Source: Gordonia sp. SL306
GTDB taxonomy: Bacteria > Actinomycetota > Actinomycetes > Mycobacteriales > Mycobacteriaceae
DNA: 64,000 bases
Assembly: GCF_026625785.1 (NCBI RefSeq)
Contig: NZ_CP113063.1
Location: 2,852,001 to 2,916,000, forward strand
Reading direction: 5' to 3'
Position 1 is the stretch's first letter. Each line of letters opens with the position of its first letter. A program made the position numbers and the translations under genes. Of the stretch, positions 9,944 through 12,873 are shown in pieces. The notes under the pieces are model-generated. The model worked only from the letters and a program-made list of their open reading frames with translations, did no database searches and had not been told where the DNA came from.

Positions 9944-10993
9944 TCAGTGGAAAGGGCTGGGCGCGGTGCGCTGTGGTGCCTCGTACGGTGTGGCGGGCAG
10001 CCCGAACCGTGCGAAATCCTCTTCCAGGGTGTCACTGAAGAAGGCCACGACATAGGAGACCTTGCCGTCGGCGTCGAGGTCGAGCACTTGGAGCTGGAAC
10101 GGCCGGTGGACGCCGTCTGGCTCGCGCATGTACAGGCCGAACGCCGGCTGCCCGTTCGCGGTGGTCGGCAGGAGGATCTGATCGCCGTCTTTCTCGGCGG
10201 GACAGTTGTGGCGGATGAGCGTACCGATGGCGCCGGCGCCCTGATACCAGCCGGTGAACGGCGGCGGCATCTCCCAGATGGCCTTGTCGGTGAACAGGTC
10301 GACGATCGCATCGACGTCGTACCGTTCGAAGGCCGACACGTACTTGGCGAGCAGTTCACGTTTCGCGGCATCGTCGAGCGTGCTCGGCGAATCCTTCTCG
10401 GGCGCAGTGTTTTTCAACTGCTCTCGGGCCCGTTGTAGGAGACTGTTCACGGTTGCGGTGGTGACCCCGATGGTGTCGGCGACCTCTGCGGCCCGCCACT
10501 GCAGGACGTCACGGAGGATCAGGACTGCGCGCTGACGTTCCGGCAGATGCTGTAGGGCGGCGATGAAGGCGAGGCGGATCGACTCCCGGGCACCCACCAC
10601 ATAGGCGGGATCGGCGTCGTCGCCCGGCGCGATCTCGTCGACGGTGCCGGCGAACGGCTCGAGCCAGGGGACCTCGTGGTCTTGCAGGAGGTCGTCGGTC
10701 GGGTCGAAGGCGTCACCCCCGAGTCCGGACGGCAGCGGCCGCCGCTGTCGGCTCCCCAGTGCGGTGAGGCAGGTGTTGGTGGCGATCTTGTGCAACCACG
10801 TGCGCACCGACGCGCGCCGATCGAATCCCCCGTAGCCACGCCATGCGCGCAGATAGGTCTCCTGCGTGAGGTCCTCGGCGTCGTGATGAGACCCCATCAT
10901 CCGATAGCAATGTGCCAGGATCTCGCGCCGGAACGGTTCGGTGACCTCGAGAAACTCGGCGTCGGACGCGTTGGGCGCAGTCGTGGTGGACAT
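9944..10993 (-). CDS. sigG: ECF sigma factor of the SigG type with C-terminal SnoaL domain
   Basis: This 349-aa protein has sigma region 2 (AEDLTQETYLRAWRGY, then RTWLHKIATNTCL), region 4 (LPERQRAVLILRDVLQW and TATVNSLLQRAR) and a C-terminal SnoaL-like NTF2-fold domain (YVSAFERYDVDAIVDLF through FFSDTLEEDFARFGLP). It resembles M. tuberculosis SigG throughout as I remember it. ECF factors of this type usually lack a classical anti-sigma factor, and the SnoaL domain modulates activity; no anti-sigma gene is adjacent here. I place the start at ATG 10993, 7 nt after a TAATCT -10, rather than TTG 11023. Confidence 0.85.
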   Translation of the reverse strand: MSTTTAPNASDAEFLEVTEPFRREILAHCYRMMGSHHDAEDLTQETYLRAWRGYGGFDRRASVRTWLHKIATNTCLTALGSRQRRPLPSGLGGDAFDPTDDLLQDHEVPWLEPFAGTVDEIAPGDDADPAYVVGARESIRLAFIAALQHLPERQRAVLILRDVLQWRAAEVADTIGVTTATVNSLLQRAREQLKNTAPEKDSPSTLDDAAKRELLAKYVSAFERYDVDAIVDLFTDKAIWEMPPPFTGWYQGAGAIGTLIRHNCPAEKDGDQILLPTTANGQPAFGLYMREPDGVHRPFQLQVLDLDADGKVSYVVAFFSDTLEEDFARFGLPATPYEAPQRTAPSPFH

Positions 10994-11000
10994 GTGTCCC

Positions 11001-11006
11001 AGATTA
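11001..11006 (-). promoter_or_regulatory. -10 element, leaderless start of sigG
   Basis: Minus-strand TAATCT, then GGGACAC (7 nt), then ATG 10993. This spacing supports the shorter sigG start. It is a housekeeping-type -10, not an ECF motif. Confidence 0.55.
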
Positions 11007-11340
11007 CGGGAAGGGTCCGACAAGATCAGCCCCTCGAGTCGAGCGTTCGACGGAACCGAAACCGGGCCCGCTGCGTCAGATGTAGATCCGGTGCGCAGGC
11101 GCCGGATGAGCCGTGCCGGCCCGGCGGTCGTGAGGGGGATCGCCGGGCCTGCCGGGGTCGATCGGGAGCGCTCGGGTGCGTCCGGAGCGGGTTTGAATCA
11201 GGCTGCGCGCAACCGACGCCAGGACGTCGTCGCAGTCCTATCATCGCCGGTGAACGCCTATATTTGCGTGCCGCCGACGAACGGGGTGGCGGGCCGTCCG
11301 AGGTTGCCAGCAGCCCTCGCGCGTTGCTAGCTTGATGCAC
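11007..11340. other. Gene-free stretch between sigG and the poly-Cys leader
   Basis: I find no credible gene here. There is a strong hairpin, GGCCCGGCG (11118-11126) with CGCCGGGCC (11141-11149), of unknown role. The right end carries the promoter of the leader ORF. Confidence 0.5.
11328..11333 (+). promoter_or_regulatory. -10 element of the poly-Cys leader transcript
   Basis: TAGCTT is followed by GATGCAC (7 nt) and then ATG 11341. The transcript would begin exactly at the AUG of the leader ORF. Confidence 0.6.
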
Positions 11341-11445
11341 ATGACGAGCCGCCAGCCCTACGTCCCAGAGGTCACCTATGTGACAACCGCTCTGGGCTGT
11401 CGGCTGCCGTTTGCTCGTGTTCTGTGTTGTTGCCGAATGCGCTGA
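11341..11445 (+). CDS. Leaderless poly-cysteine leader peptide (34 aa), putative attenuator
   Basis: The 34-codon ORF begins at ATG 11341 and ends at TGA 11443-11445. The peptide carries Cys20 and a run of three cysteines (Cys29-31; codons TGT TGT TGC at 11425-11433), then RMR and stop. It has no Shine-Dalgarno but a TAGCTT -10 placed for a leaderless mRNA. A strong RNA stem, CCCAGAGGTCAC (11364-11375) with GTGAC (11380-11384) and CTCTGGG (11390-11396), precedes the Cys run. Poly-Cys leaderless short ORFs are known in mycobacteria as cysteine-responsive attenuators in which a stalled ribosome frees the downstream ribosome-binding site. By that precedent it would control the ROK gene 117 nt downstream. 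It is too short for ordinary gene finders. Confidence 0.75.
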   Translation: MTSRQPYVPEVTYVTTALGCRLPFARVLCCCRMR

Positions 11446-11562
11446 TCTCAGCATTCACCCCGGGCCAAAGGCGGCCCACTCACTTTCCGCTCATCCGAGT
11501 GACTCGGTCGCGCCACGGCGCCGACCCGGCTCGGATGTGGCACATTCGATGAGGACACACAG
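11446..11562 (+). promoter_or_regulatory. Attenuator-type RNA region between leader ORF and ROK gene
   Basis: Several alternative stems are possible. GGGCC (11462-11466) pairs with GGCCC (11473-11477). CCGAG (11495-11499) can pair with CTCGG (11503-11507) or, as part of CATCCGAG (11492-11499), with CTCGGATG (11530-11537); the two pairings exclude each other. The ROK Shine-Dalgarno GAGGA is at 11551-11555, 7 nt before ATG 11563, and TCATC (11491-11495) could pair with GATGA overlapping it. The switch itself is inference. Confidence 0.45.
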
Positions 11563-12873
11563 ATGACCGCAACGCTCGACCGCCGCAGCACCGCCACCAC
11601 CAACCCGGAACCCGCCCGACCGCAGGCGCCCCGACCCCAGGGACACCGGCCCGCCGCCCGCGTTCCCCGCCCACTTGCCTACGGGTCACCGCGGAAGGGA
11701 GCGTCCGCCATTCACATCGCCACGCCGCAGCTGCAGCTGTCGTCGAAGCCTGCCGCACTGGTACTGCGCACCGCGCGTCTGTCCGGGCCGGTGTTCCGCG
11801 ACGACGCCGCCGAGCACACCGGGCTGAGCATCTCGACCGTGAACCGGCAGGTGGGTGCCCTGCTCAAGGCCGGTCTGATCCGCGAACGCGCCGATCTCGC
11901 CCCCGCAGGCGCCATCGGACGCCCGCGACTGCCCTTCGAACTCAACGTCGCCGACTTCCTCACGCTGGGTATCCACATCGGCTACAAGGTCACCTCGATC
12001 ACCACCCACGACCTCCTGCATCGGGTGGTCGGTGCCATCCAGATCCCCACGCCGGCCGCGGACAGCCCGGAGGAGACCCTCGAGGCGATCGGGGTCAGTG
12101 CTCGGCGTTTCGTCGGCCGCTGGGCAGGTCGTCGCGTGCTGTGGGCCGGTGTGGCCCTCGGCGGGCGGGTCGCTTCGGGCGGATTGGTGGATCACCCACG
12201 CCTCGGCTGGTCGGCTGCGCCGGTCGGCCGGATCATCGCCGAGACCGTCGGTCTGCCGGTTTCGGTCGCCTCGCATGTCGAGGCGATGGCCGCCGCAGAA
12301 CTCGTCGTCAACCCCGATCAGAAGAAGTCCAGCTTCCTGTACTTCTATGCCCGCGAGATGGTGGGTACCGCCTTCTGCGTCGACGGCACCGTGCACACTC
12401 CGACCGCGGGCCCGCCGGTCATCGGACATTTCCCCACCGGACCCACCACACTTCTCGATCCGGAGAAGACCGGGCGCCTCGAGCCGACCGCCAGCGACAC
12501 CGGCGTGGTGGATGCCGCGCAGGCGCTCGGACTCTCGGTCGACGACATCGAGGGCGTGCACGACCTCGCCCGTGGCGGCGACGCCACCGCACGCGCCCTG
12601 CTCGAGGAGCGGGCCGAGGTCCTCGGCCGGACAGTCGCGCTGATCGCCGACATCTTCAACCCCGATCACATCGTGCTCGGTGGTCAGGCGTTCACCGATT
12701 TCCCGGCCACGCTGCCGACCGTCGCGAAGGCCGTCAAGACGACGTCTGTGGTGGCCAACCGCGATGTGCGCGTGTCACATTCGGGAACCACCGTGCAGCA
12801 GCAGGCGGCCGGTGCGGTCTCCCTCGACGCGATCTACACCGATCCGCTGGAAGCCCTCGCCGCCACCGCCTGA
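11563..12873 (+). CDS. ROK-family transcriptional regulator, Rv0485-like
   Basis: This 436-aa protein has a disordered Pro/Arg-rich N-terminus (about 1-50), a winged HTH at about 70-125 (TGLSISTVNRQVGALLKAGLI) and a ROK-type sugar-kinase-fold domain (from about 130). I do not see the zinc motif CxCGxxGC usual in ROK proteins, so ligand sensing may differ. Length and layout match M. tuberculosis Rv0485, which lies next to the mycothiol gene mshA; mshA is not adjacent here, where an unrelated ABC operon converges. Expression is probably controlled in cis by the poly-Cys leader, tying this regulator to cysteine or mycothiol supply. Start ATG 11563 has GAGGA 7 nt upstream. Confidence 0.8.
   Translation: MTATLDRRSTATTNPEPARPQAPRPQGHRPAARVPRPLAYGSPRKGASAIHIATPQLQLSSKPAALVLRTARLSGPVFRDDAAEHTGLSISTVNRQVGALLKAGLIRERADLAPAGAIGRPRLPFELNVADFLTLGIHIGYKVTSITTHDLLHRVVGAIQIPTPAADSPEETLEAIGVSARRFVGRWAGRRVLWAGVALGGRVASGGLVDHPRLGWSAAPVGRIIAETVGLPVSVASHVEAMAAAELVVNPDQKKSSFLYFYAREMVGTAFCVDGTVHTPTAGPPVIGHFPTGPTTLLDPEKTGRLEPTASDTGVVDAAQALGLSVDDIEGVHDLARGGDATARALLEERAEVLGRTVALIADIFNPDHIVLGGQAFTDFPATLPTVAKAVKTTSVVANRDVRVSHSGTTVQQQAAGAVSLDAIYTDPLEALAATA

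What the first reader, a model, noticed from the sequence alone, without database searches (positions are those of the whole stretch)
11328..11562. Unannotated poly-cysteine leaderless leader peptide ahead of an Rv0485-like ROK regulator
A 34-codon ORF has a TAGCTT -10 exactly 7 nt before its ATG, no Shine-Dalgarno, three consecutive Cys codons near its end (11425-11433), a strong stem before the Cys run and mutually exclusive stems between it and the ROK Shine-Dalgarno. Seen: all sequence elements. Known: poly-Cys leaderless short ORFs act as cysteine-responsive attenuators in mycobacteria. Inference: here translation or transcription of the ROK regulator rises when Cys-tRNA is scarce, linking it to thiol or sulfur status.
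Basis: partly seen in the sequence, partly recalled or inferred. Interest (0 to 1): 0.85.

Follow-up and report, generated by a model that had tools for sequence, protein, structure and literature searches.

The report
Cysteine-sensing leader of ROK regulator
A tiny gene that ends in cysteine codons sits in front of a regulator gene in this Gordonia genome and, in varying form, in most related genera examined; it very probably raises the regulator when the cell runs short of cysteine, which would tie a regulator of unknown signal to sulfur starvation.

Summary
A 34-codon leaderless uORF (11341-11445) with CysCysCys near its end lies 117 nt before a ROK regulator (11563-12873). It is not chance: the peptide precedes ROK in 44 of 44 named Gordonia/Williamsia loci, and a leaderless uORF with clustered Cys or the same motif was found in 56 of 60 loci fetched from 27 other genus groups. 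(1) The conserved feature is not the triple Cys (22 of 44) but a peptide core, VTYVTxALGxRLPxxRxLC, under amino-acid-level selection (pN/pS 0.15; five other frames 0.43-5.5). (2) Two unnamed Rhodococcus-like loci with uORF-ROK, a divergent TauD-sulfatase pair and mshA downstream match the gene order of a ROK protein reported 18- to 33-fold more abundant under sulfate starvation (PMC8557817): the predicted direction. (3) The expression platform is unsettled: pairing of the uORF tail with the ROK Shine-Dalgarno has mixed support (for; against: 44, 64, 65), there is no intrinsic terminator, and the spacer is C-rich. The mycobacterial counterpart (Rv0485/Msmeg_0932) is in print (PMC4633059). New member of a known kind.

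The parts
11238..11257 (+). Conserved element CTATCATCGCCGGTGAACGC of unknown role about 100 nt before the uORF
   Evidence: 12-14 of 14 core positions at -95 to -119 in 22 of 108 loci, all of Gordonia/Williamsia type; 3 of 500 random window stretches reach 12. Only match below 3 mismatches in the own genome.
11304..11309 (+). -35-like TTGCCA, 18 nt before the -10
   Evidence: TTG peak at this position over 108 promoters.
11325..11333 (+). Extended -10, TGC-TAGCTT
   Evidence: TGN before the hexamer in 101 of 108 loci; TAGCTT in 35 of 108.
11341..11445 (+). Leaderless uORF, 34 aa, leader peptide
   Evidence: homologues; coding selection.
11371..11427 (+). Conserved peptide core VTYVTTALGCRLPFARVLC
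   Evidence: pN 0.066, pS 0.442 in 44 loci; pN/pS 0.19 in 40 further loci picked by the motif.
11425..11433 (+). Cys codons TGT TGT TGC; the first is TGT in 44 of 44 Gordonia/Williamsia loci
11421..11427 (+). Possible arm UCUGUGU that masks the ROK start region
   Evidence: MFE fold of the window; comparative support mixed.
11446..11562 (+). Spacer, 117 nt, C-rich, no intrinsic terminator
11543..11562 (+). CATTCG, GAGGA (Shine-Dalgarno) and ACACAG that can pair with the uORF tail
11563..12873 (+). ROK-family regulator, 436 aa (winged HTH plus ROK domain)
   Evidence: Pfam PF00480 and PF13412; match in 59 of 59 Gordonia genomes.

Best explanation
The 34-codon leaderless uORF is a cis-acting leader peptide that reports cysteine supply to the ROK gene. 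Transcription starts on its ATG (inferred) and ribosomes read it at once. When Cys-tRNA is charged they run through Leu-Cys-Cys-Cys and end at the stop codon, and ROK is kept low, either because the uORF tail pairs with the ROK Shine-Dalgarno or because the untranslated C-rich spacer lets Rho end transcription. When cysteine is scarce the ribosome halts at the first tract Cys codon (a UGU), with the conserved 18-residue stretch VTYVTxALGxRLPxxRxL in the exit tunnel; this keeps the RNA open and ROK rises. Shown here: the uORF, its conservation as a peptide, its promoter geometry and its position before ROK. Supported by published data on a Rhodococcus relative identified by gene order: ROK protein rises under sulfate starvation. 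Inferred: Cys-tRNA as signal, nascent-chain help in stalling, and which expression platform is used.
For: Peptide in 44 of 44 named Gordonia/Williamsia loci; leaderless uORF with clustered Cys or the motif in 56 of 60 fetched loci, 24 of 27 genus groups (at least g80, g89 and g91 hold genomes that NCBI names Gordonia or Williamsia, and three of the 60 repeat named loci). Amino-acid selection in the core (pN/pS 0.15), none in the N-terminus (1.1), ROK itself 0.36. First tract position at residue 29 in 79 of 94 motif loci although the N-terminus drifts. UGU at the first tract Cys in 44 of 44, 38 of 40 and 9 of 9 loci, against 5 TGT to 16 TGC in seven window genes. In 298 genomes of the order the 17 motif hits at E below 0.02 lie before ROK in 16 cases, the 17th running out of contig. 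Sulfate starvation (growth on dibenzothiophene) raises a ROK protein 18- to 33-fold in R. qingshengii IGTS8 (PMC8557817, passages); its gene order sulfatase-TauD-ROK-...-mshA is that of L236 and L237, both of which have the uORF. In M. marinum and M. bovis the Rv0485 orthologue has a high 5'UTR-to-CDS read ratio (PMC4128351, section read), as attenuation would give. A plain leaderless poly-Cys uORF resembling the known Ms5788A type sits before the rhodanese gene of the same genome.
Against: No expression data for Gordonia were found; a Gordonia sulfur-source transcriptome paper does not mention ROK in its main text (PMC7661421, passages). The triple Cys is absent in 22 of 44 loci. RNAalifold finds no conserved long-range helix. 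Modelled Shine-Dalgarno accessibility does not separate stalled from free RNA: mean 0.299 against 0.264, ribosome at stop 0.305, decoy position 0.277; Cys-stalled above free in 64 of 108 loci, decoy above free in 66; rise over 0.1 in 24 (decoy 10), fall over 0.1 in 10; genus means p 0.62. In the window it goes the wrong way (0.335 against 0.375), though with another region and block it rises (0.53 against 0.36). With the Cys codons held fixed the synonymous-choice signal shrinks to 14 of 108 loci and is not significant over genus groups (14 of 24 negative, p 0.13). In 11 close pairs with a change at the best covarying position one changed both sides and kept the pair, one changed both and lost it, nine changed one side. 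Four of 60 loci (g78 two, g97, g86) had no such uORF; the g86 locus has a leaderless ORF with scattered Cys. The IGTS8 protein is matched by gene order, not sequence, and its rise need not come from the leader.
Confidence: 0.77

Rival explanations
1. Plain codon-counting attenuator: only Cys codons matter; ribosomes paused on them stop the uORF tail from masking the ROK ribosome-binding site, as described for poly-Cys sORFs of M. smegmatis (recalled). The peptide sequence has no role.
For: In the window fold the tract pairs with the ROK start region. Natural tails pair with ROK -16..+3 better than synonymous variants in 37 of 108 loci at p<=0.05 (17 of 108 with uORF codon usage), against 4 of 106 and 3 of 108 at two decoy sites. 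The ten g2 (Mycobacterium-like) loci have CCC but not the peptide core.
Against: Core pN/pS of 0.15 and 0.19 asks for a peptide-level reason; loci with a single tract Cys exist (five LCR-type Williamsia loci; L090 and L091). Structure tests are weak.
Confidence: 0.3
2. Arrest peptide for another signal (antibiotic, redox state, a sulfur metabolite): the conserved nascent chain senses it, and the Cys codons are the stall site, not the sensor.
For: A conserved block of 18 residues ends exactly at the first tract Cys. R15 is invariant in 84 loci and G8, R10, L11, P12 too, though for the 40 loci the last four were asked for by the picking rule; in the 44 Gordonia/Williamsia loci that rule excluded none. 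Constant length to the Cys.
Against: A Cys cluster is kept where the core is absent (g2, g77, g79, g93, g95). The sulfate-starvation response fits cysteine directly.
Confidence: 0.15
3. A small protein acting in trans, co-transcribed with ROK.
For: Coding selection.
Against: The variable N-terminus keeps its length but not its sequence; 16 of the 17 strong order-wide hits lie before ROK, the 17th being cut; no match in NCBIfam.
Confidence: 0.05
4. Chance ORF or pure RNA element.
For: The first six codons of the core can form a hairpin and most of them have lower pS in the per-codon list.
Against: Conservation in 25 of 28 genus groups examined, Gordonia included, reading-frame-specific selection, no Rfam match.
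Confidence: 0.01

Closest known systems
uORF before Rv0485 / Msmeg_0932 (Shell et al. 2015, PMC4633059; section 12 with the Fig. 7 legend read)
   Same: Leaderless, described as enriched in cysteine, before the ROK gene; the legend speaks of M. smegmatis ribosome profiles for these loci.
   Different: The ten g2 (Mycobacterium-like) loci fetched here carry CCC but lack the VTYVTxALGxRLPxxRxLC core; in this Gordonia ROK is not next to mshA. The published peptide sequences are in a figure I could not see.
Poly-Cys leaderless sORF attenuators of M. smegmatis (Canestrari et al. 2020; paper not held; seen as cited; details recalled)
   Same: Leaderless start, Cys codons near the stop, downstream gene in sense.
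   Different: Output is a regulator; three consecutive Cys not needed by conservation; masking of the ribosome-binding site not established here.
Ms5788A family Cys-rich leader peptide (NCBIfam NF042933) and cis_reg_atten (NF042934)
   Same: A uORF close to these models, below their cut-offs, lies before the two-rhodanese gene of this genome and has the same layout, TGT as first codon of its Cys triplet in 29 of 30 loci and peptide-level conservation (pN/pS 0.08 in the 30 best of 52 genomes with hits, so biased low).
   Different: Four ROK uORF peptides match none of these models even at E 10.
cys-operon leader peptides of Mycobacterium (BMC Microbiol. 2005, PMC1262725, passages)
   Same: Cys runs near the stop, no terminator, Rho suggested as a weak prediction.
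   Different: Other genes.
uORFC-8-2 motif before cysS (PMC8632094, passage)
   Same: Tandem Cys codons in a uORF.
   Different: Alphaproteobacteria, intrinsic terminator.

Membership tests
Leaderless Cys-rich uORF attenuators of Mycobacteriaceae | Start codon at or next to the transcription start, no Shine-Dalgarno | tested here: met
   By sequence only: -10 hexamer 7 nt before the start in the window, 6-7 nt in 104 of 108 loci picked with a 5-8 nt rule. The transcription start was not mapped.
Leaderless Cys-rich uORF attenuators of Mycobacteriaceae | Cys codons clustered near the uORF end | tested here: met
   CCC in the window; 56 of 60 loci with clustered Cys or the motif; third tract Cys in 22 of 44, second in 39, first in 44.
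Leaderless Cys-rich uORF attenuators of Mycobacteriaceae | RNA structure masks the downstream ribosome-binding site unless a ribosome stalls | tested here: inconclusive
   For. Against.
Leaderless Cys-rich uORF attenuators of Mycobacteriaceae | Downstream expression rises when cysteine is limiting | not testable with these tools
   Indirect: ROK of matching gene order up 18- to 33-fold under sulfate starvation in Rhodococcus (PMC8557817, passages).
Orthologue of the Rv0485/Msmeg_0932 uORF | Lies before the orthologous ROK gene | tested here: met
   A g2 ROK next to mshA has such a uORF.
NCBIfam Ms5788A, Ms4527A, cis_reg_atten leader peptides | Score over the curated cut-off | tested here: not met
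   0 families up to E 10 for four ROK uORF peptides and three more.
Intrinsic-terminator attenuators (trp, ilvB, whiB7 type) | Terminator hairpin with T run between uORF and gene | tested here: not met
   0 found in window 11150-11750.
Known structured RNA families | Rfam match | tested here: not met
   0 matches up to E 1 in window 11200-11700.
Ribosome arrest peptides | Stalling set by nascent-chain sequence | not testable with these tools
   Only the conservation pattern fits.

The most novel reading that the evidence does not exclude
The leader is a nascent-chain-assisted cysteine sensor: the core ALGxRLPxxRxL in the tunnel makes the ribosome halt at one UGU Cys codon when Cys-tRNA falls, so that a codon sensor and an arrest peptide are fused. 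It is the input of a sulfur-starvation regulator: Rv0485-type ROK proteins across most of the family would be cysteine-starvation regulators that switch on sulfonate and sulfate-ester scavenging (TauD, sulfatase).
Probability: 0.35. Interest if true: 0.82.

Novelty: new member of a known kind. Interest (0 to 1): 0.6.

Why it matters
If true, it tells what the Rv0485-type ROK regulators respond to. Rv0485 is reported to control a pe/ppe pair (PMC4128351, PMC12209268, passages) and to be essential for virulence (PMC4128351); neither passage names its signal. It also gives a test case of whether a nascent peptide sharpens a codon-based amino-acid sensor, since natural members keep much the same core with one (L032) to five (L159) consecutive tract Cys codons.

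Tried and rejected
RNAalifold on 42 of the 49 Gordonia/Williamsia-type loci gave 4 trivial pairs and no covariation; the spacer varies in length and MAFFT misplaces the Shine-Dalgarno in several rows. A hand-anchored count over 49 loci gave 307 of 392 paired cells in register 0 against at most 199 in 12 slid registers, and one synonymous site (third base of the R15 codon with the base after AGGAC) paired in 34 of 49 loci with 0 of 2000 shuffles reaching that; but over 22 disjoint nearest pairs only 1 of 11 changed pairs had both sides changed with the pair kept, so most of that signal may be shared ancestry. Matched against mismatched duplex energies (2 of 2000, 0 of 2000 and 913 of 2000 permutations for Gordonia/Williamsia, other groups and g2) are likewise not corrected for ancestry.

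The motif in other genes: the 13 weaker hits given loci (E 0.069 and above, L104-L116) have no ROK gene alongside; 12 of them were looked at and read as noise; hits further down without loci were not looked at. A Cys uORF before the ROK paralogue (four loci, L005) or before mshA of this genome: none found. Outgroup ROK loci L050-L055 (Prauserella, Saccharomonospora): the scan printed no leaderless short ORF. Literature searches listed nothing on this leader in Gordonia, Rhodococcus or Nocardia; the library lacks most subscription papers.

Rows dropped before counts: one search parsed 116 of 122 loci (five without a uORF by its rule, L103 without ROK). Eight of the 116 were dropped as duplicates or for a mis-called ROK start, leaving 108. 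L038 has the peptide but failed the promoter rule and is not in the 108. L088 and L140 have a mis-chosen start.

Full report
1. What is there. The window lies in a Gordonia genome (named relatives, same-genus search). Reading it confirms every sequence element of the finding: TAGCTT 11328-11333, 7 nt, ATG 11341, 34 codons, TGT TGT TGC 11425-11433, TGA 11443-11445, 117 nt of spacer, GAGGA 11551-11555 and the ROK ATG at 11563. An in-frame ATG at 11335, too close to the -10 for a usual start, is present here and in L006, L007 and L016 in the shown part (that output was cut).

2. More than chance. brought 51 loci with a relative of the ROK protein; 44 of them are named Gordonia or Williamsia, and all 44 have the peptide before ROK (43, L038). 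In 60 loci from 27 other genus groups, fetched at the ROK match, 56 have a leaderless uORF with clustered Cys or the motif; the four without are L119 and L120 (g78), L158 (g97) and L175 (g86, a leaderless ORF with scattered Cys). With Gordonia that is 25 of 28 groups. The groups are the tool's; g80, g89 and g91 at least hold genomes that NCBI names Gordonia or Williamsia, and L126, L139 and L142 repeat named loci. Of 161 genomes of the family, 136 had a ROK match at E 1e-30; the other 25 were not examined. The motif [AGM][LM]GxRLP is in 94 of 108 uORFs parsed. Groups g2, g77, g79, g93 and g95 have Cys clusters without it.

3. What is conserved. In 44 Gordonia/Williamsia loci (the window and 43 named; the motif rule excluded none of them) the 19-codon core has pN 0.066 and pS 0.442 (ratio 0.15), while the other five frames give 0.43 to 5.5; the N-terminus gives 1.1 and the ROK genes of the same loci 0.36 with pS 0.515. 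In 40 further loci picked by the motif, so biased low, the core ratio is 0.19, the N-terminus 0.90 and the part after the Cys pair 0.98. So the stretch that would lie in the exit tunnel up to the first tract Cys is kept as a peptide and the rest drifts. Codons 0-5 (VTYVTT) can form a hairpin, so RNA may share in that part; codons 6-17 mostly vary freely at synonymous sites. The first tract position is residue 29 in 79 of 94 motif loci although the N-terminus drifts, which points to a length constraint. It is coded TGT in 44 of 44, 38 of 40 (one TGC, one not Cys) and 9 of 9 g2 loci. The second and third Cys are optional: 39 and 22 of 44.

4. Same layout in a known family. The two-rhodanese gene of this genome (matches at G000:C1:3522688-3523458) has a leaderless uORF MQLRREFMLTRRRAIDFCRVADCCCR that scores 36.5 bits (cut-off 45) on NCBIfam Ms5788A and 25.2 (cut-off 27) on cis_reg_atten. 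Its core is found in 52 of 59 Gordonia genomes at E up to 0.5 (the weakest, E 0.097, is doubtful); in the 30 best, chosen by similarity and so biased low, pN/pS is 0.08 and the first Cys of the triplet is TGT in 29 of 30. Peptide-level conservation is therefore not unique to the ROK leader. The ROK leader matches none of these models.

5. RNA. In the window fold, UCUGUGU (11421-11427) pairs with ACACAGA (11557-11563) and CGAAUG (11434-11439) with CAUUCG (11543-11548). Natural uORF tails pair with ROK -16..+3 better than synonymous recodings: 37 of 108 loci at p<=0.05 with ROK codon usage, 17 of 108 with uORF usage, decoys 4 of 106 and 3 of 108. With Cys codons held fixed this falls to 14 of 108, mean z -0.62, and 14 of 24 genus groups negative (p 0.13); much of the signal is thus the choice of TGT, which may have another reason. 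Covariation beyond ancestry is weak, RNAalifold sees nothing, and blocking the RNA at the Cys codons opens the Shine-Dalgarno little more than other positions do (means 0.264 free, 0.299 Cys, 0.305 stop, 0.277 decoy). I count masking as possible, better supported in Gordonia (mean z -1.02 over 37 loci with Cys codons fixed), and not shown. No terminator is seen. The spacer has C over G in 104 of 108 loci, against 31 of 108 in the 100 nt before the promoter; but the ROK genes are C-rich too (C/G 1.27 against 1.44), so this only allows Rho. High 5'UTR-to-CDS read ratios for the Rv0485 orthologues of M. marinum and M. bovis (PMC4128351, section read) speak for early termination or a stable leader there.

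6. Function of the output. The ROK protein has a winged HTH and a ROK domain and is a distant relative of Mlc/NagC. In one g2 genome, Mycobacterium by my inference, it lies 10 nt before mshA and has a CCC uORF (L182; TIGR03449, 663 bits); in this Gordonia mshA is 1.47 Mb away. In five Rhodococcus-like loci (L183, L185, L187, L236, L237), all with the uORF, a TauD dioxygenase gene is divergent from ROK; in L236 and L237 a sulfatase gene follows TauD (Pfam) and mshA lies 5.6 kb downstream of ROK. PMC8557817 (passages) lists in R. qingshengii IGTS8 choline sulfatase peg5938, TauD peg5939, ROK peg5940 and MshA peg5948; ROK was 18- to 33-fold more abundant in the dibenzothiophene than in the sulfate culture and found only there in stationary phase, and the sulfatase and TauD proteins were found only there. 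I take peg5940 as the orthologue by gene order; I did not see its sequence or its leader. This is the direction the leader predicts, but it does not show that the leader causes it. A Gordonia sulfur-source transcriptome paper does not mention ROK in the main text (PMC7661421, passages).

7. Prior art. The uORF before Rv0485/Msmeg_0932 is in Fig. 7B of Shell et al. 2015 (PMC4633059; section and legend read). Canestrari et al. 2020 is not held; that six poly-Cys loci respond to cysteine and that stalled ribosomes free a masked ribosome-binding site is recalled from its abstract and agrees with how it is cited. Not found in print: the family-wide spread, the peptide core, the dispensable triple Cys, and the tie to the sulfate-starvation ROK of Rhodococcus. 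The library is partial, so this is no proof of novelty.

8. Verdict. Real, conserved, very probably a cysteine- or sulfur-responsive leader of a sulfur-starvation regulator; a new member of a known kind with an unexplained peptide-level constraint that is worth testing.

Noticed in passing
11238-11257: CTATNNTCGCCGGTGAACGC at a near-constant distance (-95 to -119) before the uORF in 22 of 108 loci, all of Gordonia/Williamsia type; in the own genome the other 10 matches all have 3 mismatches, with 6 in the control. It may be a regulator site or a second promoter with a leaderless GTG.
   Followed up: partly
G000:C1:3523682-3523747 (-), L210: Leaderless poly-Cys uORF close to the Ms5788A type before the two-rhodanese gene, a comparison case in the same genome.
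   Followed up: partly
11446-11562 and homologues: CGAAT in the uORF tail (46 of 49 loci) has complementary ATTC-type copies both near the ROK Shine-Dalgarno (18 of 49) and in the middle of the spacer (28 of 49), by my count; a possible three-way choice of pairing.
   Followed up: partly
11026-11454 (-): A 142-codon antisense ORF covers the uORF; pN/pS of the three antisense frames over the core is 0.43, 1.39 and 5.46, which gives it no clear support.
   Followed up: partly
G000:C1:3144614-3145702: Second ROK paralogue (about 40% identity); such a match is listed in 58 of 59 Gordonia genomes by my count. No Cys uORF was found before the four paralogue loci scanned.
   Followed up: partly
9944-11023 (-): Sigma-70 region 2 and 4 protein with a C-terminal SnoaL-like domain, divergent from the uORF.
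   Followed up: no
L135: uORF with a longer N-terminus (MPSQPRIPSATQVADECVTVSYMTVALGCRLPLARILCCRMS), an exception to the length rule.
   Followed up: no
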